From Candidatus Poribacteria bacterium (lineage in GTDB: Bacteria > Poribacteria > WGA-4E > WGA-3G), in assembly GCA_028820845.1 (NCBI GenBank), contig JAPPII010000074.1, forward strand, positions 1-64,000: a stretch of DNA of 64,000 nt. Reading direction: 5' to 3'. Shown here in pieces: positions 8,243 to 21,239 of the stretch (the first letter of the stretch is position 1; every line of letters starts with the position of its first letter). The notes under the pieces were generated by a model. The model worked only from the letters and a program-made list of their open reading frames with translations. It was not told where the DNA came from and did not search any database. Position numbers and translations under genes: made by a program.

Positions 8243-9043
8243 TTATGCTTTCACACCTGCTGTTAACTCCGATGCGAATCGTTTCACCGCATTAAGTAAT
8301 TTCGCTTCGTCGTTGATATGTTCTTCGATAACATTGACAATCGCACTTCCCACAATCACACCATCGGCAATCTCCGCCACCTGTTCTGCCTGCTCAGGCG
8401 TTGACACACCGAAACCGACACTGATGGGCTTATCCGTATGTTTTCGCAACTCCGCGATCGTCGGCGCGATTTCGTCTGACAACATCGCCCGCGCCCCTGT
8501 CACACCCGTCAGTGAAACACAATAGATAAATCCTGTACTGACCGATGCGATCAGTTGCATCCGTTCCGGTGGACTTGTCGGGGCAACCATGAAGATCGTA
8601 GCGAGGTTATATTGCGGTGCGATTTCAAGGAGCGATTGTGCTTGTTCTGGCGGTAGATCAGGAACAATTAAACCATCAACACCTACTTCGCATGCAGCCT
8701 TGCAAAACGCCTCTTCCCCCATCCGGAAAATTGGGTTATAGTAGCTCATCAAAGCGATAGGAATTTCCGTCTGTGGGCGGAGATCTGCCACCATTGCCAA
8801 AATCTGCTCCAGTGAGATACGATGTGTAAGGGCGCGTTCGCTTGCGCGTTGGACAGTCGGTCCGTCTGCGATTGGATCGGAGAAGGGGACACCGAGTTCG
8901 ATAAGGTCTGCCCCAGCTTCCTCGAGGGTGAGGAGAAGTTTGTCGGTAAGTTCAGGATTTGGGTCTCCAGCACAGAGGTAGGGCATAAATGCGCTGGCAC
9001 CTCGGTCTCGGAGTTCTTGAAATTTTTTGTCAATTCGATTCAT
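8243..9043 (-). CDS. trpA: tryptophan synthase alpha chain
   Basis: The 266-aa alpha subunit cleaves indole-3-glycerol phosphate to indole and glyceraldehyde 3-phosphate; indole is then tunnelled to TrpB. The catalytic pair falls at the classical positions: E49 in DLIELGVPFSDP and D60 in ADGPTVQ. The phosphate-binding GVTGAR and GFGVSTPEQ segments are present, and the length is standard. No trpB, trpF or other trp gene is adjacent, so the pathway genes are dispersed here. Confidence 0.97.
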   Translation of the reverse strand: MNRIDKKFQELRDRGASAFMPYLCAGDPNPELTDKLLLTLEEAGADLIELGVPFSDPIADGPTVQRASERALTHRISLEQILAMVADLRPQTEIPIALMSYYNPIFRMGEEAFCKAACEVGVDGLIVPDLPPEQAQSLLEIAPQYNLATIFMVAPTSPPERMQLIASVSTGFIYCVSLTGVTGARAMLSDEIAPTIAELRKHTDKPISVGFGVSTPEQAEQVAEIADGVIVGSAIVNVIEEHINDEAKLLNAVKRFASELTAGVKA

Positions 9044-9219
9044 TATGTATACGTGGGTCTCGGCTTCCTGTTGTGTTTTTTAAATTATACCCTGCAAGAA
9101 CCGAATTGTCAAGAGGTTGCTGGTTTACAAAACACTTAGCCGATTGCTATAAGCGTTTCCTCGATTTCGAGAGGTAGCTCAAAAAAAATAAAAGCGTTTC
9201 AATATTCTTGAATTTACTT

Positions 9220-11874
9220 TTAGATGAGTTCCACGTTAATAGCAGATAAACCCCCACCCTTCGCCGTATGATTTAGCTCAAATTCTACTCTTTGGTTTGG
9301 TTGCAGAGTACTAATAGATCGGTCATGAACCTCCTCTATATGCACAAAAATACTTCGTTCAAAACTATTTGATCTTATATAACCAAAACCTTTATCTTCG
9401 TCAAATTTAGTTACGACTCCTTGATACCATTGACCCATTGCAAATTCATAGAGACCATGTCTATATACAATCACTAGGCATTCTCTGATTTGCATATAGA
9501 TGGCATCTTTATCAAAGTCTTCTATTGTTCCTTCAAGCTGATGCCCATAACGAGTAACGGGAAACACTGTAATTTGCCTATTCTGTGCAGATTTAAGGAA
9601 CCTATCTTGGATACTAAGCCGTTCTTTTCGAGTGTGTGGGGGACCTTCTAGTTTTTCTCTTCTGACAGAATGCAAGGTTTCAATGTAAGGTTCCACCACC
9701 GGCCATGATGCCGATGAGCAAGCAAAAAGAATGCTTGATTTTTCTAATGTCTGCCTTTCATTGGAGCGATCAACACCTATGAATGTGTCAACAGATTGTT
9801 CGATTTTTGACAGTTCTACCGATTTTGTGTAAGTGACAAACACTGTGGGTTGGTAGTTATCTGATTGCAGCATTGAAACCCACCGTGGCTCAACTTTGGG
9901 TTTAGTCTTGGACTCTGATTTGGGTTTAGTCTTGGACTCTGAAGTATGGCCTGAGAGTTTGGTTTCACGTTCAACTTCAGGTTTAGTAACTCGACCAATA
10001 AAGTGTTCAGGGGAAGGCCATATCTCATGAAAACAGTCTAATAACATCCTCTCTCGCTGCCTAATTTGTGCTACGTCCCACGTGTTATTATTCTCATACT
10101 TTTCACATATCTCTTTGTTCAGTATAATATCTGCGTTATCACCTTCTGACAACTTCCTTTTTTTATCAAGAAACGAAAGTTGGTTTGGAAGATACTCCGT
10201 GCAAAAGACTAGATTCCCTATGCTAAATGAATTCTCTAGCCTATACTGTTTTAATGGAGGCATTATTTGCTGCACGGACAAAGCACTTATAGGTTGAATG
10301 ACACTCTCCTGATCATCGTCCCTAGTCCGGCGTAAAAAATCCTTAAGATAGAACGTGATTTCTTTCGGTTCCTCTGATGGATTTTCTTGATTCCAACTTT
10401 CAATCTTCCAAAGTTCAATTCGATATAAAATGTAACATAGCATATTCCAAGCAGGTATTTCAACACGGGGTCCGCCATGGCGTATTTGATATCCAACCCT
10501 CCGCAAACCATTCAAAACTGCACCATCATGTTGCCACCGTTTACCTTCACCTGGTTTGCCTTGCCGAAATAGAAATTCTGCAAATTCTTCAACTCTAAAT
10601 TTTCCAAATACTCTACTTGCAGATTCACCGCTGTTTTGATTGGGAATTAGGTGAGAAAAGAAATTGTTTATTCTTCTACATACATGCTTGTCTTCATTAA
10701 CTCCATTACGTAGTAAACCCCGCACGATGTAAGACTCCAACATAGTAAAAACCTTGGTAAGTTCACTATCACATAAGTCAACTTCATTTCTGATGAACAA
10801 CATGAATGGGTGCAAACTCGTAAGATTAAGATTGTCAAAAATAAGATTAAGATCCTCATGAAACTGTAGTCGGTAAGTTTTCATCTTAGGATCAGTCATT
10901 TCCTTATAAAACACCGCGTAATTTTTTAATTGCTCAAATTCATATTTAATATCCTGCTCATCGGTTAGTGCCTTACTATATTCCCAATATAACTCAAAAG
11001 GTTTTACGTTCTTTTCAAAACAATCAGGTCCCTGTTTTGCCATCAGAAACGACCGGAAAAACGATTCAAGTTTATCTTCATCCCAATACTGAGAATCGTT
11101 TTCAAAAACCCAGTAATCCTTATAGAAACGCTCAGCTTCATTTTCAGCGCGCAGGAACAGATCATTTCTCAGGTAATCGAACTCCGAAAGTTTCCTTCCG
11201 GTCGCATTAATCGACGCAAATACTTGTTCGGGACGCTCATCTTCACTACCGAGTTCTAGATTAACAAGCATAAAATTGTCTGTGATAGAACGGAATAGGC
11301 GACGCATTTTTTCAAAAGCGGGATTTTCTCCGAAATATTCTCGAATCACATTTGCAAAATGGATGTAAGCTCCAAGAATCCTATGCTCATCGGAATTTGC
11401 TCCGTTTTGCCTTTGCAAATACTCCTGCCAATACTCTCCAGAGATGACTTGCTTGAATGCAGGTTGATCGAAGTCTGTCGGAACAAATGTAAATTCATAA
11501 TCTGGATCGTCTATTAAGACATCTTCGTCATTTATTATGTATTTGGATGCAGCACTTGCCAATTTACTTTGTTGAGTATCATCATTTTGTGTTTGGCATA
11601 GATCCCTAATAACGCACAGGATGATTTGAAAGGTTGCAAGGCGTTGCTGTCCATCAATCACTTCATATGCCTTCTTGCCAATAGAACGCGTCACAATAGG
11701 CCCTGTGAAATGCGTAGGGTGATCTTCACTTCTTATTTGAAAAAGGATATCCTTCCAAAGGGTATCCCAATTTGTTTCATCCCAAACATAACGTCGTTGG
11801 TAGTGCGGCACTCGATAGTGCACATTACTACTAAACAATTCATCAATACTGTTAGCTTGCGCATTAATCGACAT
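9220..11874 (-). CDS. GmrSD-like DUF262 protein with DUF1524 remnant, Hfq-like domain and cold-shock domain
   Basis: An 884-aa multidomain protein. Residues 1-250 are a DUF262 (GmrS/ParB-like) domain: PHYQRRYVWDETNW at 23-36 and the nucleotide motif DGQQR at 74-78. Around 530-620 the outline of a DUF1524 (GmrD, HNH) domain persists (SIGNLVF, N-x-x-LSF, then IWPSP ending near 622), but the catalytic E-H of the usual 'EHIMPQ' is Q535-Q536, so the nuclease is probably dead. A basic linker with KSESKTKPK repeats follows. Residues 755-815 align with Hfq: IQDRFLK matches Hfq QDPFLN, GHQLEGTIEDFD matches the Sm1 motif, and VYRHGL matches VYKHAI. Residues 816-884 are a cold-shock domain with RNP1 KGFGYI and RNP2 IFVHI. 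A strong AGGAGG precedes the ATG. It is the last gene of a minus-strand cluster with a TIR-like protein and a shorter paralog. Confidence 0.85.
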   Translation of the reverse strand: MSINAQANSIDELFSSNVHYRVPHYQRRYVWDETNWDTLWKDILFQIRSEDHPTHFTGPIVTRSIGKKAYEVIDGQQRLATFQIILCVIRDLCQTQNDDTQQSKLASAASKYIINDEDVLIDDPDYEFTFVPTDFDQPAFKQVISGEYWQEYLQRQNGANSDEHRILGAYIHFANVIREYFGENPAFEKMRRLFRSITDNFMLVNLELGSEDERPEQVFASINATGRKLSEFDYLRNDLFLRAENEAERFYKDYWVFENDSQYWDEDKLESFFRSFLMAKQGPDCFEKNVKPFELYWEYSKALTDEQDIKYEFEQLKNYAVFYKEMTDPKMKTYRLQFHEDLNLIFDNLNLTSLHPFMLFIRNEVDLCDSELTKVFTMLESYIVRGLLRNGVNEDKHVCRRINNFFSHLIPNQNSGESASRVFGKFRVEEFAEFLFRQGKPGEGKRWQHDGAVLNGLRRVGYQIRHGGPRVEIPAWNMLCYILYRIELWKIESWNQENPSEEPKEITFYLKDFLRRTRDDDQESVIQPISALSVQQIMPPLKQYRLENSFSIGNLVFCTEYLPNQLSFLDKKRKLSEGDNADIILNKEICEKYENNNTWDVAQIRQRERMLLDCFHEIWPSPEHFIGRVTKPEVERETKLSGHTSESKTKPKSESKTKPKVEPRWVSMLQSDNYQPTVFVTYTKSVELSKIEQSVDTFIGVDRSNERQTLEKSSILFACSSASWPVVEPYIETLHSVRREKLEGPPHTRKERLSIQDRFLKSAQNRQITVFPVTRYGHQLEGTIEDFDKDAIYMQIRECLVIVYRHGLYEFAMGQWYQGVVTKFDEDKGFGYIRSNSFERSIFVHIEEVHDRSISTLQPNQRVEFELNHTAKGGGLSAINVELI

Positions 11875-12097
11875 CTCTAAATCCTCCTAATTTTACTTTC
11901 ATTTAGTACGAAAAACGACGGCTGCCAAATTTCATTAAAAAAAGCACGTATCGGTCATTTTACCTATAAGTGTATATAACCAGAGGGTCCTCACTCAGCA
12001 TTAGGGTATTTGACACCTGTCGAATTTGAGAAACAAAACTTGTCTTAACTTTACGAATTTTTGGTTTAAATAAACGGTAGCACTTCAAAGATCCGCT

Positions 12098-13624
12098 TTA
12101 AAGAAAGTAGGAAGGGGATGGCCACACAGAACTAAAAAGGCTAACAGGGCCATCAGATCCATCACCTAAAGCCAAAAGGTCAGCAATTTCTTGTAAAAGT
12201 TTCATATAGAGACCCCAATTTAGCGGTTTCTGGCCATACCGTTGCTCTTCATTCCCAGTCATTTGATAAAACATGTAAGTAATGAAATCCGCATTTTTGG
12301 AATTCACATTCTCAAAGGCAGTCGCAACATCCTTGTCGTCTGGCCAGCCCCCGCATGAATTATAAAGACATTTTGCGAATGAGTCTTTGGAGAAGCTGCT
12401 CTTGTCAGACATCACAGAAGAAAAGAAACCGTCTATCGCCTTGTAGCTGCTCTTAATTATCTGTGTATGACTATATGTTGCATCTTCAAGAACAAGCATT
12501 CGCCTCACTATATATGACTGCGCAAGCCAGCAAACTTCGTTTAAATCATTCTCCTGATTGTGCTTTACGTATAATAGGAATGAGTCCAAATCACGAAGGT
12601 TAAGATCTTTGCAAAACCTCTCGTGGGTCTTAAAACTTGTTTCACATCGTAACTGTCGATAGGAATTTGCCCATCTACTTAATTCTTGAAATTCATATTT
12701 GATTCCTTGTCCGGTGGTTAGTTCTTCTCTATACTGTTGATAGACTTCAAATGGTTTTACATTCTTTTCAAAACAATCAGGCCCCTGTTTTGCCATCAGA
12801 AACCTCCGGAAAAACGAATCTAACCTATGTTCCTTCCAATAATCTGGATCCTTTTCAAAATCCCAATGAGCCTCATAGAAATCCTCAGCTTTATTTTCAG
12901 CGCGTAGGAACAGATCGTTTCTCAGGTAATCGAACTCCGAAAGTTTCCTGCCAGTTGCATTAATCGAGGCAAATACCTTTGCCGGATGCTCGTCTTCACT
13001 ACGAAGGTTTATATGAATGAAACTGAATCTATCTGTAATGGAACGAAATAGTCGACGCATTTTTTCAAAATCGAGATTGTCTCCCACATATTCTTGAATC
13101 AGATTTGAAAAATGGTCATAGGCTTTAAGAATGCTATGCCCATCGGAATTTGTTCTGTTCTTCCCATACTCTTTGGAGGTGACTAGACTAAATGCAGGTC
13201 GATCATGTTCTGTCGGATTGAATGTGAATTCATAGTCAGGATCGTCTATTAAGACATCTTCGTCATTTACTATGTATTTAGCTGCAGAACGTGCCAACGT
13301 TCGTTTTTGAGGATCATCTTGTGTGTTGCATAGATCCCTGATAACACAAAGGATAATTTGGAAGGTTGCAAGGCGTTGTTGTCCATCAATCACTTCATAT
13401 GCCTTCTTACCAATAGAACGCGTCACAATAGGCCCCATAAAATGGGTTGGGTGGTTCTCCTCTTCTTGTTGTTCTTTTATTTTTAGTTGAAAAAGAATAT
13501 CCTTCCAAAGCGTATCCCAATTCATTTCATTCCATACGTAACGTCGTTGGTAAAGCGGCACTCGATAGTGCATATTACTACCTAACAATTTATCAATAAG
13601 AGAACTATGTTCATATAATAGCAT
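12098..13624 (-). CDS. short DUF262 protein (paralog of the adjacent gene)
   Basis: A 508-aa protein very similar to the N-terminal half of its downstream neighbour. It shares PLYQRRYVWNEMNWDTLW, VIDGQQRLATFQIIL and KVFASINATGRKLSEFDYLRN, and stretches of DNA are almost identical. The DUF262 DGQQR motif is intact, so NTP binding or hydrolysis is plausible. After about residue 330 the two diverge. The DUF1524 core seen in remnant form in the neighbour is missing here, yet the chain still ends with the equivalent WPSPSYF, as if the HNH region had been removed internally. It has no Hfq-like or cold-shock tail. AAGGG lies about seven bases before the ATG. It lies 131 bp after the 164-aa gene and 223 bp before the long paralog. 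Confidence 0.85.
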   Translation of the reverse strand: MLLYEHSSLIDKLLGSNMHYRVPLYQRRYVWNEMNWDTLWKDILFQLKIKEQQEEENHPTHFMGPIVTRSIGKKAYEVIDGQQRLATFQIILCVIRDLCNTQDDPQKRTLARSAAKYIVNDEDVLIDDPDYEFTFNPTEHDRPAFSLVTSKEYGKNRTNSDGHSILKAYDHFSNLIQEYVGDNLDFEKMRRLFRSITDRFSFIHINLRSEDEHPAKVFASINATGRKLSEFDYLRNDLFLRAENKAEDFYEAHWDFEKDPDYWKEHRLDSFFRRFLMAKQGPDCFEKNVKPFEVYQQYREELTTGQGIKYEFQELSRWANSYRQLRCETSFKTHERFCKDLNLRDLDSFLLYVKHNQENDLNEVCWLAQSYIVRRMLVLEDATYSHTQIIKSSYKAIDGFFSSVMSDKSSFSKDSFAKCLYNSCGGWPDDKDVATAFENVNSKNADFITYMFYQMTGNEEQRYGQKPLNWGLYMKLLQEIADLLALGDGSDGPVSLFSSVWPSPSYFL

Positions 13625-13755
13625 ATCTAAACCCTTTTTAGCAGAATTTGCGAGTTTTCAATAGACTCAGGCACTTTTTAATGTTATCGTATTTGCAAAT
13701 TTTTTGCAAGTTAAATTTTTTGAAAAAACCACGAATCGGCATGAGTCATTGATAT

Positions 13756-14250
13756 TTACACACTATCCTTTGTTTCCTCAAGGTCAGTTAAATCCTCAAC
13801 CCCAGCGATGTCTGCTAACATTTGAGAATACTTGCGTAACTCCGCCTGCAGCGCGTTGAGTTCTTGGCGGAAAACGGCACGTTCCGTTTCGTCCTCAAAG
13901 TCGCCTGCCAGACTTTTCCGATGCCACTTTGCTGTGAAAGGACGAACAACTTGATTAAGAACAACAATCGCGATTTTTGTGAAGTTTATACACTCTGGCC
14001 CGTGTTCTCTGATAACTTTTCTTGTGGTTGCAAACAGTGAATAGACGCTGTCTAAAGCCGTTTTTTCATCGCCATATTCAATAGGTAAGAGTTGTGCGGT
14101 AATCCGTGTTAACAATTCGATATAGAGTGCCCAGGCAGCGTTTTTGTCAGCTGCTTTTGGGGTCCACTCCATTTGTAGGAAAGGAGGCGTGATCTTCAGA
14201 GAAGACATTCCCCATTTTTCAAGCCAATTTGAGAATTTCATTTTTGCCAA
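13756..14250 (-). CDS. uncharacterised 164-aa TIR-partner protein
   Basis: I cannot name this protein. It is soluble, begins MKFSNWLEKWGMSSLKIT, and has a central largely helical region (WALYIELLTRITAQLL) and a charged, probably coiled-coil C-terminus (ERAVFRQELNALQAELRKYSQML). Its start overlaps the end of the TIR-like gene by 13 bp, which implies translational coupling and a stable functional pairing. A regulatory, adaptor or target-sensing subunit for the TIR protein is a reasonable guess; no catalytic motif is visible. Confidence 0.75.
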   Translation of the reverse strand: MAKMKFSNWLEKWGMSSLKITPPFLQMEWTPKAADKNAAWALYIELLTRITAQLLPIEYGDEKTALDSVYSLFATTRKVIREHGPECINFTKIAIVVLNQVVRPFTAKWHRKSLAGDFEDETERAVFRQELNALQAELRKYSQMLADIAGVEDLTDLEETKDSV

Positions 14251-14789
14251 CTATCTCCAGTACGGTTTTTGCCAAACAGTAGATCGGAATTATGGGGATT
14301 CAGATTCTCCTGTTTCCGCCGCTTGAAAGCTTCATGTATCCACGCTTGTACGAGATTAGGGTTGGTATGCCAATCGTACAATTTTGCATATCCGCATTCT
14401 GCATTACGATACAAACGCGGTGGTATAATATAGGGGTTGTATTTATCCCTACCATAATCGCAATGGGCAGGCAAAAAAATACCGATAAGTCCAGAACGGT
14501 CACTTGCCTTTGTGTGACTTATGCTCGCCGCAATTTCCCAATCTACGTGTTTTCTTTTCCACGTCTCTGTCCCAATCAAAACCACCGTCACCGTGGAATC
14601 TTGAAGGTAATCGTCCCGGATTATTTGACGGACAGTTTCTGTCTTGGTGTTGGGATCGATATCATCATCTTGAACGGATCTCGACTCCATGATGTGGTGA
14701 ACCTCTGAAAATAATTCTTCAAACAGATCTTTATACTTTTGATCGTTTTCATGATGGTAACTCACGAAAACCTTATGGCGATGAGACAT
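14238..14789 (-). CDS. TIR-like domain protein (DUF1863 / MTH538 type)
   Basis: A 183-aa protein made of a single TIR-like fold. The first strand KVFVSYHHENDQ, the segment STVTVVLIGTETWKRKHVDWE and the following helix match the TIR-like family (PF08937) to which the Thoeris sensor ThsB belongs. E85 in VDWEIAAS occupies the place of the catalytic glutamate of NAD-consuming TIR domains. The family is known to cleave NAD or make cyclic-ADP-ribose-type signals on infection; that activity here is inferred. No ThsA (SIR2/SLOG or Macro effector) is visible nearby. GGGGGA lies upstream of the ATG. It heads the minus-strand cluster, with the next gene overlapping its end. Confidence 0.85.
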   Translation of the reverse strand: MSHRHKVFVSYHHENDQKYKDLFEELFSEVHHIMESRSVQDDDIDPNTKTETVRQIIRDDYLQDSTVTVVLIGTETWKRKHVDWEIAASISHTKASDRSGLIGIFLPAHCDYGRDKYNPYIIPPRLYRNAECGYAKLYDWHTNPNLVQAWIHEAFKRRKQENLNPHNSDLLFGKNRTGDSWQK

Positions 14790-14822
14790 ATAAAATCCCC
14801 CGTTTTTATGTAAGAAGTCATA

Positions 14823-14851
14823 TTGAGTAAAACATAAGGATGTGGTAAAAT
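14823..14851 (+). promoter_or_regulatory. candidate sigma-70 promoter ahead of the IS remnant
   Basis: TTGAGT (14823-14828) and TAAAAT (14846-14851) are separated by 17 bp. It points into the decayed transposase gene and away from the TIR-like cluster. Five of six bases match consensus in each hexamer; function is inferred. Confidence 0.45.
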
Positions 14852-14924
14852 AGTGGAATTAGAGCAGATAGTTTATGTCTTTTTTTTCCGTTTAGATCGC
14901 TATTCCTTTATGAAAGGTGCTATT

Positions 14925-15796
14925 ATGTTAGAAGCAACTCAAAAGGAGACCCCAAGATACAAGGGTATTCCAAAGCAGGTTTCCCGCAAGGATTTTAATC
15001 GGTATATTTTGCCACATCTATCGAAACGCATCAAAGGTCCGAAGCCGAAACTCTCCTTCTATAAGATATTCAACTATATCCTCTATGTTTTACATACTGG
15101 CATGTAATGGGATCGACTCCGAACCCGGCGGAATGAACTCCATTGGTCGAATGTCTATAAATGGCATAATCGTTGGTCAAAAGACGGTTCTTATGAGAAA
15201 CTCTTTGAAGCATCGGTGATACATCTGCTGGAGACTGAACAACTTGACACGTCTCGTCTTCATGGAGATGGATCCAATATGGTCGTCAAAAAAGGGGCAA
15301 TGGCACTGGATATTCAGGACACAAACACCAGAAAGGTGAAAAAGAACTGACCATCACTGATAATCATGGATTCATCATTGCTTGGATAACGACGCACCCC
15401 GTCAACCAACATGATACAACGCTTTTGCCGCAAGCCTTTACCGGTCTTATGACCTTGAGTCATCGGATTGGCATGGATCTGAAGGCATCCGCGCTCACGC
15501 TGGATTCTGGGTTTGATTCTAAGGCGAATCATGACCTTATCAAAGCACATGGGTTGATTCCAGTGATCTATCCAAACCGGCGGAATGCTAAGACCCCTAT
15601 CGTCATTGCTCGTAAGTTCCGGTGGTTTAGAAAAGATTTATACAAAGACCGATATAAAGTTGAGCGAACTTTCGGGTGGCAAGACACTTATCGGAAGCTC
15701 GCACTGAGCTATGATAAACTCAAAGAAACGCGTTTAGGGTTTCGATATTTAGCATATTCTATGATTAACTTGCGTATAACTTTCAACAACTCTTAG
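14925..15796 (+). pseudogene. decayed IS5/IS4-type DDE transposase
   Basis: The first reading frame (MLEATQKETPRYKG...) has AAGG before its ATG and runs to an in-frame TAA at the codon after HTGM. Translation resumes directly as WDRLRTRRNELHWSNVYKWH, so this is a single nonsense change. A second lesion is a minus-one shift at the A6G4 tract near 15287-15296, after which the frame reads GNGTGYSGHKHQKGEKELTITD and then DLKASALTLDSGFDSKAN and KVERTFGWQDTYRKL. The last carries the DDE glutamate region. The A6G4 tract could be a programmed frameshift site in the intact element, but the nonsense codon makes this copy non-functional. Clear terminal inverted repeats were not found. Confidence 0.8.
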
Positions 15797-15893
15797 CGCG
15801 TACTCGCTATGAGTTCTAAAACTATACACATAATGTCCGGTTAGGAGTAAAAGGAAATGGGACCGTGCTACGACACATATAATGCCCGGAGGA

Positions 15894-16289
15894 CTAATCG
15901 ATCGATGCCTCAGTAATGAAATCCCTTTCCAACATAATAGTTCGCCTGACAAAATCAATCTGTAGGCGATATTCTCGTAGCAAATGGGTTCCTATGAGAA
16001 TTTCACTACCGACCACGAAGGTTGCCTCTGCCTGAATCATCTTGCCATCAAACGGAAAATTAACCCGGTAAAGTTCCTCCACGATCCTTTGCCCGCCAGC
16101 TAATACAGAAGTCACTTTTCCTATATATTGTGGGTTTAATCTATCTCGTAAAGCTTCAGACAGTTCCAAATCTCCGTTAAAACCTGTATCGATAGTCGCC
16201 TCCCAGGCTTGCCCCTCTATGGAGAGAGTGATTACTGGTACTCCTGCATCTGACACTCTTCCTTGAATCACCGTCGCCCACCTTTCCAA
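15894..16289 (-). CDS. retropepsin-like (clan AA) aspartic protease
   Basis: A 131-aa protein with the single-lobe aspartic protease pattern: the active-site triad D34-T-G in ATIDTGFNGDLELS, a flap-like segment, and the second hydrophobic-hydrophobic-glycine motif EILIGTHLL. Like retroviral proteases it would need to dimerise. Its start overlaps the end of the 83-aa gene upstream by 22 bp, so the two form a coupled pair. In bacteria such small clan AA proteins usually sit in two-gene cassettes of unknown role. Substrate unknown; a self-processing or partner-cleaving role is possible. Confidence 0.75.
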   Translation of the reverse strand: MERWATVIQGRVSDAGVPVITLSIEGQAWEATIDTGFNGDLELSEALRDRLNPQYIGKVTSVLAGGQRIVEELYRVNFPFDGKMIQAEATFVVGSEILIGTHLLREYRLQIDFVRRTIMLERDFITEASID

Positions 16290-16519
16290 AGATAGGCTTC
16301 GTAGCCGATACGTTCAAAGAAAAGTGGGGAAGTTAAGCCTTCAGTACTACGTTGTTCAACAATGTCTATTGCAGAATCGCCGAACCAAATTCGTCCGCTT
16401 TTCGGATCGATCCCAGCTGTCTGTCCAATACGGTCCGTAATATCGTGCTGTTTCTGGTATTCCGCCCAAATCTGCTTGCATTTGCGTGAGTCGGCTTCTG
16501 TCCAGTTTGAGTGTTTCAT
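16268..16519 (-). CDS. small partner protein of the aspartic protease
   Basis: An 83-aa protein that I recognise only as a conserved small hypothetical. The C-terminal half contains GRIWFGDSAIDI and ends in a basic KGGRR. The N-terminus is charged and helical (EADSRKCKQIWAEYQKQHD). AAAGGAGAAATC lies upstream of the ATG. It overlaps the protease gene by 22 bp. It may be the substrate, inhibitor or antitoxin-like partner of the protease; nothing in the sequence decides between these. Confidence 0.65.
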   Translation of the reverse strand: MKHSNWTEADSRKCKQIWAEYQKQHDITDRIGQTAGIDPKSGRIWFGDSAIDIVEQRSTEGLTSPLFFERIGYEAYLWKGGRR

Positions 16520-16565
16520 TATTGATTTCTCCTTTCCGTTGCAAGCTCAGTTTGAAACTTAGCAA

Positions 16566-16590
16566 AACGGGCAATAAATTGCCCTACTAC
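16566..16590. repeat. palindromic repeat, family B copy 2
   Basis: Exact 25-bp inverted copy of 6456-6480, with GGGCAAT/ATTGCCC arms, followed by the same CTACGAAC extension. It sits between the RHH-type gene and the 83-aa gene. Confidence 0.85.
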
Positions 16591-16596
16591 GAACGG

Positions 16597-16860
16597 TTAG
16601 GTCCCTATGTCTAATGCTTCATTAATGCGTTCATAAATCCATTCGTCAATAAGTTCGCCCGCTGGTATCCCGCGTTCCTCAGCAAGTTTTATCACGACCT
16701 TGGCATCTTCGGATGTTAGCCAAACAGAGACTTTGAATTCACCGCCCTGTTTCAAGAGCGTTCCCTCGCGTTGCTGCATCTCTTGGGCCACGAAGTATTC
16801 ATGGTCATCGTAGACATCTTCGTATTCTTCAACTTCGGGATCTATGATGTGTTTAAGCAT
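16597..16860 (-). CDS. small acidic ribbon-helix-helix-like protein
   Basis: An 87-aa protein. The C-terminal part KVSVWLTSEDAKVVIKLAEERG, then IPAGELIDEWIYERI, has the strand-helix-helix layout of CopG/Arc-type DNA-binding proteins, while the N-terminus is very acidic (EEYEDVYDDHEYF). It starts inside the end of the ATPase gene (8-bp overlap), so the two are coupled. It could be an autorepressor or antitoxin-like partner of the ATPase-nuclease. The RHH call is by eye. Confidence 0.6.
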   Translation of the reverse strand: MLKHIIDPEVEEYEDVYDDHEYFVAQEMQQREGTLLKQGGEFKVSVWLTSEDAKVVIKLAEERGIPAGELIDEWIYERINEALDIGT

Positions 16861-18472
16861 TCTCAGTGCTCCTATCTGAGGGCTTTTTTTGTATCACAGG
16901 AATGACATAACTCCGAATCGTGAAACCTTCCACCGTCTCTGTCTCTACCCGTGGTTCCGAGGCTTCACGGTGATCAAAGACGACATAGTACCCTTCTATC
17001 GCGTTCTCCAATTTGAGATACGCAGCGAGCTGCCTTTTGCCTGCTTGATATCGTCTCTCGCCTCTCCAAATCTTGGTCTCAACGATATATTTTCGTTGGT
17101 TGTAGACAATACAAAGATCTATCCGCCCACGACCCATTTGGACTTCAAGGAACATGTTGCCCCCCACCGCTTGGACGAACCCATCAAGGTAGGTGAGAAG
17201 GAGATGTCTGCCGACAGATTCTTGTGGCGTTTGCGGCACTTGCAGAATTTGAAAGCCTGCCCGCGCGATGAAGTCCCTGAAGTTATCAAGTAACGACTCC
17301 ATGTCAATCTGTCCCGTGTTCGTGAGGTAAGCCCGGAAACCTATGATGTTGTTTTCAGGGAAATATTTCTCCTCAAGCCCATTTACCGTAGGCTTGAATG
17401 CTTGTAGGATAGCATATAGGTAAATTGGGTTAGCAATGTCACACATATTGTCTGTGCCTTTGGAAATAACGCCATAGGTGGCAAGGATGTTGATGAGCTC
17501 ATCGTGCGGGTTGAAAGGTACCCCATCCTCGTGTGCTGTGATTCTCATCAGAATTTTTTCAAAGCGCGGATCTTTACGAATATTAGTTGTCAGATGCACA
17601 ATGTTGGTGTTTTGGCTGTAGAGGAGTTGTGTGTGTGCCGTTATAAAATGCGACATCGTGATCGTTTCCGCTTTCGGAATATCAAACTCCTCTGTGAGAA
17701 TCTGCGCGAGTCGATTGACAAGCACAGGTTGGCCGGCAGTCTGTTTATGAATAGATGTGATAACCGCTGGATTGAAGGTTTGGCCGACTTCATCCGTGTA
17801 TTGTCCAAGCAGGTCTTGTACTTCCTCTCGCGTGAAGTTCGGTAAATGGAACTCATCCTGGATATTGAACGGAGAGATGGATCGATCGTAGTTAAGTTGG
17901 TTGATACTCTTAACGCCGACAATGCTGACGCTATGGGGGCATCGCGGTTTACCAGCAATGTAGATGTGGCGGAGGGTGTGGAGAAAATCACTCAGTGCGG
18001 CTTGCGGAATGCCGTCAAACTCGTCGATAACGATGACAACCTTTTGCTCGTTACATTCAACGTCCAAAAAATTTGCAAACTCCCTAAAGAATTCCAACAG
18101 GGAAAGGTGATCGGCAAGCCCTGTATTTGTCAAAAATTCCGTTAAAGCATCTGAGGGAGCAATGTCACGGTGCTGGAAAACCTGTTCAATTCCTTGGCGA
18201 ATCTGTTGGTAGAGATGCCCGTAGAAAGTGGAAGGGGAAAGGTTTTTATAGATATCAAAATTCAGCGGAATCGGGAAATAGGTAGGTTCTTCTGTGATGA
18301 GTCTGTCCAAGGCACGCTGAAAGAAGGTCGTTTTACCGGTTTGACGCGGCGCAAAAATGACAATATACTTACCGTCTTTAATGCGGTTGATGAAATCGTT
18401 AATTTTCTCGATGCGTGCGACGACATAGTTTTCCGCTGGATGCACGGGACCTTGGGTGCCAAAACGTCTCAT
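16853..18472 (-). CDS. AAA-type ATPase with C-terminal PD-(D/E)XK nuclease domain
   Basis: A 539-aa protein. The N-terminus has Walker A APRQTGKTT (41-49) and Walker B VVIVIDEFDG (about 147-156), in the style of STAND/archaeal-type ATPases and AAA-ATPase-like (PF14516) proteins. A winged-helix-like middle follows. The C-terminus reads GRIDLCIVYNQRKYIVETKIW and then a basic helix with GKRQLAAYL, the D and E-x-K pattern of restriction-like nucleases. Proteins of this build are frequent in genomes rich in mobile elements and are thought to be defence or selfish factors; a specific activity is not known. It is coupled to the small RHH-like gene downstream. Confidence 0.8.
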   Translation of the reverse strand: MRRFGTQGPVHPAENYVVARIEKINDFINRIKDGKYIVIFAPRQTGKTTFFQRALDRLITEEPTYFPIPLNFDIYKNLSPSTFYGHLYQQIRQGIEQVFQHRDIAPSDALTEFLTNTGLADHLSLLEFFREFANFLDVECNEQKVVIVIDEFDGIPQAALSDFLHTLRHIYIAGKPRCPHSVSIVGVKSINQLNYDRSISPFNIQDEFHLPNFTREEVQDLLGQYTDEVGQTFNPAVITSIHKQTAGQPVLVNRLAQILTEEFDIPKAETITMSHFITAHTQLLYSQNTNIVHLTTNIRKDPRFEKILMRITAHEDGVPFNPHDELINILATYGVISKGTDNMCDIANPIYLYAILQAFKPTVNGLEEKYFPENNIIGFRAYLTNTGQIDMESLLDNFRDFIARAGFQILQVPQTPQESVGRHLLLTYLDGFVQAVGGNMFLEVQMGRGRIDLCIVYNQRKYIVETKIWRGERRYQAGKRQLAAYLKLENAIEGYYVVFDHREASEPRVETETVEGFTIRSYVIPVIQKKPSDRSTENA

Positions 18473-18611
18473 TTTCCCCTCCCTTAGCAGTGTATTCTTT
18501 TATATTTTTCTTTCCTTTTTTTGCTAAAGGATACCATGAAAACTTTGCCTATGTCAAATTGAATTCACGGGTTTTAGAGCAGACGAATGCACGTAAAACT
18601 ACAATAAAGAG

Positions 18612-18633
18612 GGCGAGGCACGAAGACCTCGCC
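18612..18633 (-). terminator. candidate intrinsic terminator downstream of clpB
   Basis: GGCGAGG and CCTCGCC pair around an 8-base loop. On the minus strand the stem is followed by CTCTTTATTGT, a moderate U-rich tail. It lies 24 bp past the clpB stop codon. Confidence 0.65.
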
Positions 18634-18656
18634 TTGCATGGTTTGTGTCAGCTAAA

Positions 18657-21239
18657 TCACGCCTTCCTGAAAACGAACCCTTCACCTTCAAAATCCACAG
18701 CAATCGCATCACCGTCCTGGCAGTTACCCTCTAACATCTCAATAGCCAACGGATTGAGAATATCGCGCTGGATTGTCCGTCGGAGCGGACGTGCGCCGTA
18801 GACAGGATCAAATCCACGTTTCACCAACTCCGCGTTCGCAGGTTCTGTGAGTGTCAAGGTCATCTCCTTCTCCGCGAAGCGAAGACTCAGCTGCGCCAGT
18901 TCCAGTGTGACAATCCGCTGCAACGCCTCAATGTCGAGCCGGTCAAAGATAATCAGATCGTCAATACGGTTCAGGAATTCCGGTGGGAAATGTGCTTGTA
19001 CGGCTTCCACTACCTTACGCCGAATTTCCTTTCCGTCCAAGAGCGCATCACTAATCCATTGACTACCGATATTGGAAGTCATAATAACAACCGTGTTCTT
19101 GAAATCGACTGTGCGTCCTTGCCCGTCCGTCATTCTACCGTCGTCGAGCATCTGGAGTAAGACGTTGAACACCTCTGGATGCGCCTTCTCTACCTCGTCG
19201 AGTAAGATGACACAATACGGATGTCGTCGGACTGCCTCTGTGAGCTGCCCGCCTTCGTCGTAGCCGACGTATCCCGGCGGCGCGCCGATGAGTCGCGAGA
19301 CGGTGTGTTTTTCCATGTACTCGCTCATGTCGATACGCGCCATAGCGTTTGCGTCGTCGAAAAGGAACTCCGCAAGCGATTTGGCGAGGTGCGTTTTGCC
19401 AACACCCGTCGGACCCATGAAGAGGAAAGAACCGAGCGGACGATCCGGGTCGCCGAGGCCGACGCGGGCGCGCCGGATTGCGTTAGAAACAGCACTCACT
19501 GCTTCGTCCTGTCCAATGACCTGTTCGCACAGGCGTTCTTCCATGTGAAGGAGTTTCTGCGTCTCACCTTCCATCAACCGATAAACAGGGATACCCGTCC
19601 ATTTCGCTACGATTTCGGCAATATCCTCTGCACTGACTTGCTCTTTCAACATCTGTGTGCCGTGCGCATCTGTTTCCAGGGCTTCTCGGATGGTGCTGAG
19701 TTGGGACTCCAGTTCCGGTATTTTGCCGTATTCCAGTTCTGAGGCTCTACCGAGATTGCCCGAACGTTTGGCTTGTTCCGACTCAATACGGAGTGCCTCA
19801 ATCTGTTCCATGAGTTCACCGATCTGCATCAAATTCGCCTTTTCGTTCTGCCACGTAGCTTTCAGGGCGTTTGCTTTCTCTTTAAGTTCAGCAAGTTCAG
19901 CAATCAGTTTTTCAAGTCGTTGTTGGGACGCGGTGTCCTCTTCTTTCTCCAATGCTTGCTGTTCGATTTGGAGCTGGATGATACGGCGTTCCACCTCGTC
20001 AATTGCCTCCGGCACGCTATCGATTTCAATCCGCAGGCGCGATGCCGCTTCATCCACCAAATCCACGGCTTTATCGGGTAAAAACCGTTCCGAGATATAG
20101 CGTTTTGAAAGCGTCGCAGCAGCAACAATTGCATTGTCCTGAATTTGCACGCCGTGATGTGTCTCATAGCGTTCCTTCAAACCCCGCAGGATCGCAATCG
20201 TGTCTTCCACCGACGGTTCTTCAACCTGTACGGGCTGGAATCTGCGTTCCAAGGCGGCATCCTTTTCAATATGTTTACGATACTCATCGAGCGTGGTTGC
20301 ACCGATGCATCGGAGTTCACCGCGCGCCAGTGCCGGTTTGAGCATATTCGAGGCATCAACGGCACCTTCCGCGGCACCCGCACCGACAATGGTATGCAGT
20401 TCGTCAATAAACAGAATGACTTGTCCTTCTGCCTGTTCTATATCGGCAAGGACAGCTTTCAATCTGTCCTCAAATTCACCGCGATATTTACTGCCGGCAA
20501 TAAGTGCGCCTAAATCGAGTGCAATGAGCCGTTTCTCGCGAAGGCTTTCTGGAACATCGCCGTCAGCGATGCGTTGTGCGAGTCCTTCCACAATCGCCGT
20601 TTTCCCGACACCGGGTTCACCGATGAGCACGGGGTTGTTTTTCCGCCTGCGGGAAAGGACTTGCATCACACGACGAATTTCATCATCACGTCCGATAACC
20701 GGATCGAGTTTTCCTGAAATCGCTTCTTGCGTTAACTCTCGACCAAATCGGGTGAGTGCCTGATACTTATCCTCTGGATTCTGATCGGTTATCCGTTGGT
20801 TGCCACGGATGTCAACGAGTGCCTTGAGGATTTTATCTTTCGTTACACTCGCTTCCCGAAGGATTTTGCCGACCTCGGTTTGCTTAGCTTCAGCACACGC
20901 GATCAGGAGATGTTCTGTACTGACGTATTCGTCTTTAAGTGCCGTTGCCTCTTTGAAGGCACCGTCTAATACGGATTGCAGTGCAGGAGCAATACGCATT
21001 TCAGCTGCCGCGCCTTGCACATTGGGTGTCTTTTGAACGAGATCCTCAATTGCTGAGGTAATTCCGGGAATATCAGCACCTAATTTCTGGAAAATCGGTG
21101 TGACAATTCCGTCAGTTTGCCCAATGAGAGCCAACATCAGGTGTTCAACACCCAGTTCGGGGCTTTGGGCATCTGAGGCTAAACTTTGTGCTGTCTGGAG
21201 TGCTTCTTGTGCTTTAATTGTAAATCTATCAAATCTCAT
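18657..21239 (-). CDS. clpB: ATP-dependent protein disaggregase ClpB
   Basis: An 860-aa Hsp100 chaperone that, with DnaK, pulls proteins out of aggregates. The order is complete: N-domain ([16 protein letters not shown] and its repeat), NBD1 with Walker A GEPGVGKT near 205 and [15 protein letters not shown], a long coiled-coil middle domain (about 405-525), NBD2 with Walker A GPTGVGKT near 605, and the C-terminal small domain with YGARPLRR. The coiled-coil M-domain separates it from ClpA/ClpC. Expression is normally heat-inducible; here an inverted repeat lies upstream but no HrcA-type CIRCE site is recognised. Confidence 0.98.

What the first reader, a model, noticed from the sequence alone, without database searches (positions are those of the whole stretch)
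12098..13624. The short DUF262 paralog seems to have lost the HNH region but kept the chain end
The two DUF262 proteins share near-identical DNA over the first ~300 codons and similar pre-ATG leaders. The short one lacks the DUF1524 core but still ends WPSPSYF, equivalent to IWPSPEHF at about 618-624 of the long one. So one paralog is a bare GmrS-like module and the other a GmrS-like module plus RNA-binding tail. They may form a mixed oligomer.
Basis: seen in the sequence. Interest (0 to 1): 0.62.

Follow-up and report, generated by a model that had tools for sequence, protein, structure and literature searches.

The report
Nuclease-dead DUF262 pair with RNA-binding tail
Two neighbouring genes in a poribacterial genome resemble a known anti-phage DNA-cutting enzyme family, but both seem to have lost the cutting site, and one has gained RNA-binding domains instead, which suggests a defence-type sensor with a different output.

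Summary
The core observation holds. The short gene (12098-13624, -, 508 aa) is a DUF262/GmrS protein without an HNH core whose chain end matches the end of the DUF1524 region in its neighbour (9220-11874, -, 884 aa). Two details need correcting. The shared DNA is 80% identical, not near-identical, and stops abruptly at codon ~306. The long paralog has also lost the catalytic His (EHIMP reads QQIMP), so neither looks like a nuclease.

Relatives show a recurrent type: seven tandem short+long pairs in six of 84 genomes of the phylum, with the HNH histidine in 0 of 14 paired proteins against 66 of 67 unpaired ones. Five of seven long partners have RNA-binding tails by Pfam (Hfq-like+CSD, CSD, 3xS1, 7xS1; one below cut-off); two have no Pfam hit. 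The DUF262 halves tend to group by locus while the C-terminal halves keep short/long identities, as expected from gene conversion and consistent with (not proof of) a hetero-oligomer. NTPase motifs are intact.

Best reading: a TgvAB-like two-gene NTPase sensor that exchanged DNA cleavage for an RNA/single-strand-binding output. Output, target and oligomer are inferred. New variant of a known kind.

The parts
12098..13624 (-). short DUF262 protein, 508 aa
   Evidence: GmrSD_N E 2.4e-31, no GmrSD_C
12908..13591 (-). DUF262/GmrSD_N NTPase-type domain of the short protein (DGQQR at residue 80, QRRYVW at 26, FASIN at 218)
12707..13624 (-). half of the short gene shared with the long gene (codons 1-306; 71.7% aa, 80.3% nt, dS 0.51)
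12104..12124 (-). terminal WPSPSYF, equivalent of the last DUF1524 helix
9220..11874 (-). long DUF262 protein, 884 aa
11155..11844 (-). DUF262/GmrSD_N domain of the long protein
10039..10224 (-). degenerate GmrSD_C/DUF1524 remnant (19.2 bits, cut-off 23; only profile positions 79-136 match)
10267..10272 (-). QQ (residues 535-536) where unpaired relatives have the EH of EHIMP; ends a predicted strand in the model
10000..10020 (-). WPSPEHF, end of the DUF1524 remnant in the long protein
9454..9612 (-). Hfq-like domain (27.9 bits, cut-off 27)
   Evidence: low model confidence
9229..9423 (-). cold-shock domain (55.2 bits, cut-off 27)
   Evidence: fold match to CspA-type proteins Z ~12

Best explanation
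The two genes encode the subunits of a nuclease-free, two-component DUF262 system. SHOWN by sequence: both subunits keep the DUF262 NTPase motifs; the short one has lost the HNH core and kept the surrounding helices; the long one keeps an HNH scaffold without the catalytic His and carries an Hfq-like and a cold-shock domain; such tandem pairs recur, and the long partner usually has an RNA-binding tail (Hfq/CSD, CSD, or repeats of S1). SUPPORTED: the DUF262 halves of a pair exchange sequence (gene conversion) while the C-terminal halves stay distinct. INFERRED: short and long assemble through their DUF262 parts into a hetero-oligomer; NTP binding/hydrolysis, triggered by a phage-related nucleic-acid signal as in DndI, SspE or TgvAB, changes the conformation; instead of releasing a DNase, this exposes or clamps the RNA/single-strand-binding tail, which binds transcripts and blocks their use. 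Least certain step: whether the tail is the output or part of the sensor.
For: Tandem short+long pairs: seven in six genomes of the 84 held for the phylum: window 508+884; G071 597+892; G078 535+1212; G070 576+805 and 600+895; G044 562+773; G036 363+778, the last short one truncated. HNH histidine: 0 of 14 paired proteins, against 66 of 67 unpaired full-length ones; 4 fragments dropped, 3 unpaired 'long-like' proteins counted apart (0 of 3). A lone EHLAS hit in one paired protein lies in an N-terminal helix, and the KEHLHP of another lies in its tail. Three DUF262 motifs present in 14, 14 and 13 of 14 paired proteins. Tails: CSD over cut-off in the window and G071; S1 over cut-off with 7 and 3 stretches; CSD below cut-off in G070a; none found in G044 and G036. 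Topology: the DUF262-half tree joins window short and long at 100/100 and rejects all shorts as one clade (p-AU 2.4e-6); the C-half tree rejects the window pair as sisters (0.003) and the G078 pair (5.6e-8). dS 0.51 in the shared half against 1.8 in the rest. Purifying selection, dN/dS ~0.34. Fold: best solved relatives DndI Z 20.1 and SspE ~16 for the short protein; DndI Z 20.2 for the long one.
Against: No activity, binding or complex was tested, and a complex cannot be folded with these tools. Two of seven long partners have no recognisable RNA-binding domain. Hfq-like or CSD tails also occur on two unpaired proteins with an intact EHIMP/EHVMP (L062, L068), so the tail does not imply nuclease loss. 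G070b and G078 pairs do not show their own partner as nearest DUF262 half, and the G071 group is not rejected as a clade in the C-half (p 0.083). The clades for some tests were named after the tree was seen. The 14 paired proteins are related, so 0 of 14 is not 14 independent losses. A CSD can bind ssDNA as well as RNA (family knowledge).
Confidence: 0.42

Rival explanations
1. An ordinary TgvAB-type (type IV) restriction pair in which cleavage still occurs by a degenerate or relocated nuclease site, or in trans by one of the intact DUF262-HNH paralogs elsewhere in the genome; short and long act as sensor/regulatory subunits.
For: TgvA and TgvB both carry DUF262 and both are needed (PMC11411939, passages). 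The window's genome holds five more DUF262 matches; four of them were read and have EHI or HHI motifs.
Against: TgvB needs its His and Asn (H571A and N602A abolish defence), and the long protein lacks the His. All nine DUF262 pairs of other kinds seen on viral contigs keep an EH motif in one member (seven of nine printed). No further DUF262 gene with an intact motif lies next to the seven pairs in the stretches read; the other neighbours were not scanned for nucleases, apart from those in the window.
Confidence: 0.2
2. The RNA-binding tail is part of the sensor (it detects phage RNA or single strands) and the effector is the DUF262 NTPase itself, e.g. by depleting NTPs, with no nuclease.
For: Intact DUF262 motifs in the pairs; tails vary (Hfq/CSD/S1) while the NTPase halves are the conserved part, as expected for a changing sensor and a constant effector.
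Against: No precedent met in the papers read for NTP depletion by DUF262; variable tails fit a changing effector just as well.
Confidence: 0.17
3. A decaying defence locus: duplicated GmrSD genes that lost their nuclease and are on the way out, with no present function.
For: The G036 short partner is truncated and the window neighbourhood holds an IS-like remnant (by eye).
Against: Both window ORFs are intact, dN/dS between the paralogs is ~0.34, motifs are kept in 13-14 of 14 proteins, and pairs of the same layout recur at two chromosomal sites.
Confidence: 0.12

Closest known systems
TgvAB of Vibrio cholerae VPI-2 (two-gene GmrSD-like type IV system)
   Same: Two adjacent genes, both DUF262; one partner is DUF262 without DUF1524 (PMC11411939 passages).
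   Different: TgvB has a working DUF1524 His-Me site that is essential; here neither protein keeps it, and the long partner has an Hfq-like/CSD tail.
DndI and SspE (phosphorothioation-sensing DUF262-DUF1524 nickases)
   Same: Best solved folds for both proteins (Z ~20 for DndI); DGQQR NTPase motif.
   Different: Single proteins with an essential HNH (DndI N541A loses defence; PMC11662687 passages). DndC is present in only 3 of 6 pair genomes.
BrxU / GmrSD single-chain type IV enzymes
   Same: DUF262 plus DUF1524 layout; BrxU matches both models more weakly (Z 10.1 long, 6.0 short).
   Different: Intact nuclease in one chain; the GmrSD survey lists DUF4268, DUF4357 and DNA_binding_1 as extra domains, no Hfq, CSD or S1 in the passages read (PMC4619093).
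Cold-shock domain effectors such as the retron Se72 effector family
   Same: CSD used in a defence setting; the long protein hits NF038236 weakly (27.6 bits, cut-off 82).
   Different: There the CSD is a small separate protein (62-position model); here it is the tail of a DUF262 protein. The retron role is recalled, not read.

Membership tests
GmrSD / type IV modification-dependent restriction enzymes | DUF262 with QR, DGQQR and FxxxN motifs | tested here: met
GmrSD / type IV modification-dependent restriction enzymes | DUF1524 His-Me/HNH site with catalytic His | tested here: not met
   absent from the short protein; QQ in place of EH in the long one
GmrSD / type IV modification-dependent restriction enzymes | cleaves modified-cytosine DNA | not testable with these tools
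   needs biochemistry
TgvAB | two adjacent DUF262 genes, one without DUF1524 | tested here: met
TgvAB | second protein with an intact DUF1524 nuclease | tested here: not met
DndI / SspE | DUF262 plus helical linker fold | tested here: met
   Z 20.1 and 20.2 to 9jfl, rmsd 8.6 and 10.6 over 453 and 521 residues
DndI / SspE | HNH nickase site | tested here: not met
DndI / SspE | phosphorothioation genes in the same genome | tested here: inconclusive
   DndC in the window genome but in only 3 of 6 pair genomes, 27 of 84 overall
Hfq / Sm-like | Hfq domain over the curated cut-off | tested here: met
   27.9 against 27 bits, marginal; the NCBIfam Hfq equivalog cut-off is not reached
Cold-shock domain | CSD over the curated cut-off | tested here: met
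   55.2 against 27 bits

The most novel reading that the evidence does not exclude
Poribacteria have turned the DUF262 restriction scaffold into an RNA-directed immune machine: paired, nuclease-dead NTPase subunits whose sensor halves are kept matched by repeated gene conversion, and whose output is a swappable RNA-binding tail (Hfq+CSD, CSD, or arrays of up to seven S1 domains) that shuts off transcripts rather than cutting DNA.
Probability: 0.25. Interest if true: 0.78.

Novelty: new variant of a known kind. Interest (0 to 1): 0.55.

Why it matters
In the systems read about here (GmrSD, BrxU, SspE, DndI, TgvAB), DUF262 is a switch for a DUF1524 nuclease. A recurrent pair that keeps the switch, loses the nuclease in both subunits and usually gains RNA-binding tails would show that the switch can be rewired to another output. 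The authors of the TgvAB paper left open why TgvA is needed at all; a pair whose DUF262 halves are kept alike by gene conversion makes the hetero-oligomer idea testable.

Tried and rejected
Rfam and tRNA scans of the window: nothing. TIR/164-aa neighbours as obligate partners: rejected, since among the seven pairs only the window has them (the contig-broken G052 locus does too) and the 164-aa gene occurs without DUF262 in many places. Phosphorothioation as the obligate signal: not supported. Relatives outside the phylum: one genome-contig scan found only two poribacterial loci; plasmids gave 155 records, none covering 80% of the long protein; viral contigs gave only other DUF262 types. PDB sequence search: no hit for the short protein and only CSD/Hfq for the long one. 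Literature: searches listed no paper that I could recognise as describing a DUF262 protein with an Hfq or CSD tail or a nuclease-dead DUF262 pair; only listings and passages were read, and preprints and most subscription journals are not held. The G009 DUF262 array is broken and distant and was left out of the counts. A numbering slip: the two window DUF262 proteins were given without their start Met, so residue numbers there are one too low; parts are corrected.

Full report
WHAT IS THERE. The window is from a poribacterial metagenome-assembled genome: the only named relatives found are Candidatus Poribacteria records, and the window is G000:C74:1-64000 of a 5.69-Mb assembly. On the minus strand lie a short DUF262 gene (12098-13624, 508 aa) and, 223 bp downstream, a long one (9220-11874, 884 aa). 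Both have a strong GmrSD_N match. The long one adds a sub-threshold GmrSD_C match (19.2 bits, cut-off 23), an Hfq match just over cut-off (27.9 against 27) and a clear cold-shock domain (55.2 against 27).

THE ALIGNMENT. Over 304 aligned codons of the first half the two are 71.7% identical in protein and 80.3% in DNA; over 187 codons of the second half 32.6% and 52%. The change is abrupt near codon 306-310. The synonymous distance also jumps, from 0.51 to about 1.8, so the contrast is not just stronger selection on the first half.

THE CHAIN END. WPSPSYF of the short protein lines up with WPSPEHF at 619-625 of the long one. In an alignment of 26 DUF262 proteins this terminal tryptophan helix closes the DUF1524 region in all rows but two truncated ones. 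The short protein keeps the helices before and after the HNH core; 25 of its residues (468-492) stand against about 107 of the long protein (504-610). The AlphaFold2 model (14 aligned sequences, mean pLDDT 79.8) has no strand after residue ~206, so there is no sign of a hidden HNH.

THE LONG PARALOG IS DEAD TOO. Unpaired relatives of the same branch read L/IEHIMP or a close variant before GNL; the window's long protein reads SVQQIMPP at 533-540, at the end of a predicted strand, and its GmrSD_C match starts only after that segment. Across 88 DUF262 ORFs read in 81 stretches (the window plus 80 loci), after dropping 4 fragments, a motif [EH]H-hydrophobic is found in 66 of 67 unpaired full-length proteins (the exception reads IERVMP), and at its place in 0 of 14 paired ones and 0 of 3 unpaired long-like ones. 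The regular expression also caught EHLAS in one paired protein, but that lies in an upstream helix, not at the motif column; KEHLHP in another lies in the tail. As a control, nine DUF262 pairs of other kinds on viral contigs each keep an EH motif in one member (L102's first member reads IEHIRS).

A RECURRENT TYPE. Seven short+long tandem pairs occur in six of 84 genomes of the phylum: window, G071, G078, G070 (two), G044 and G036 (short partner truncated). Two more loci look like the same arrangement cut by contig ends (G057 C85/C80 and G052 C62/C116). Long partners carry Hfq-like+CSD (window; G071 with the Hfq part below cut-off), CSD (G070a, below cut-off), three S1 (G070b) and seven S1 (G078); two (G044, G036) have no Pfam tail hit, although their tails align with the G070a one. 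Such tails are not confined to dead proteins: L062 (Hfq) and L068 (CSD, below cut-off) have an intact EH motif.

CONCERTED EVOLUTION. In the tree of DUF262 halves the window's short and long are sisters (100/100), and the G070a/G044/G036 shorts are sister to their longs; all shorts as one clade are rejected (p-AU 2.4e-6). In the tree of C-terminal halves the shorts group together (six rows 78/93; four of them 98/93), and window short+long as sisters are rejected (p 0.003), as are the G078 pair (5.6e-8) and the G070a/G044/G036 group (0.021); the G071 group is not (0.083). The window's long protein is 46% identical to the G071 long one in the C half but only 41% in the normally better conserved DUF262 half, as expected if its DUF262 half was exchanged. 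Not every pair fits: the G078 and G070b halves have nearest neighbours in other loci. Gene conversion between the two genes of a pair is the simplest account. It suggests, but does not show, that the two halves must match physically.

FOLD AND MECHANISM. Both models match DndI best (Z 20.1 and 20.2, with large rmsd) and SspE next. In DndI and SspE the DUF262 part senses the DNA mark and its NTP hydrolysis controls the nuclease part (PMC11662687, PMC10952713; passages); BrxU dimers come apart on NTP binding. In TgvAB both DUF262 genes and the HNH site are needed (PMC11411939, passages). From this I infer an NTP-driven hetero-oligomeric sensor whose output is no longer DNA cleavage but the RNA/single-strand-binding tail. 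What is sensed is open: DndC is in the window's genome but in only 3 of 6 pair genomes, so phosphorothioation cannot be shown to be the general signal.

CONTEXT. The window pair sits between trpA and clpB (names by family knowledge from the translations). In 26 genomes of the genus with both genes on one contig at that site the spacing runs from 152 to 9616 bp, the window being the largest; G081, with the two genes far apart, and genomes with them on different contigs were left out. DUF262 genes of other kinds also lie at this site (L063) or beside its trpA (L061). The G078, G070 and G044 pairs sit at another shared site, near a histone-deacetylase-like gene and a methyltransferase-pheT pair (names by eye). 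This is the behaviour of an accessory element in a hotspot.

VERDICT. The pair is a new, nuclease-less variant of the DUF262 two-gene systems, of clear interest if its RNA-directed output can be shown.

Noticed in passing
window 13756-14250 and 14238-14789 (-): A ThsB-type TIR protein (3.1e-21) overlaps a 164-aa gene with no family in Pfam, PADLOC or NCBIfam. The 164-aa protein is strongly conserved (24 of 84 genomes, many 77-90% identical) and has a TIR hit in 10 of 20 loci checked.
   Followed up: partly
window 9043-18660: The trpA-clpB interval is a variable insertion site: 152 to 9616 bp in 26 genomes with both genes on one contig.
   Followed up: partly
window 16853-18472 (-): AAA protein with a weak C-terminal NERD/PD-(D/E)XK match; 63-82% identical copies lie near DUF262 genes in L051 and L056.
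   Followed up: no
window 14853-15796 (+): Two short ORFs that look by eye like pieces of an IS transposase, between the TIR gene and its upstream neighbours.
   Followed up: no
L050:6700-10338: 1212-aa DUF262 protein with seven S1 domains and a dead HNH remnant.
   Followed up: partly
L134:1408-3474 (-): The only unpaired full-length DUF262-DUF1524 protein of 67 without the His: it reads IERVMP where relatives have IEHVMP.
   Followed up: no
L101-L105, L109: Another kind of DUF262 pair on viral contigs: first protein with LEHIHA (L102 IEHIRS), second 721-785 aa without such a motif.
   Followed up: no
G077:C72:30994-32738: A DndC match lies directly beside a DUF262 gene, as in DndI-type loci.
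   Followed up: no
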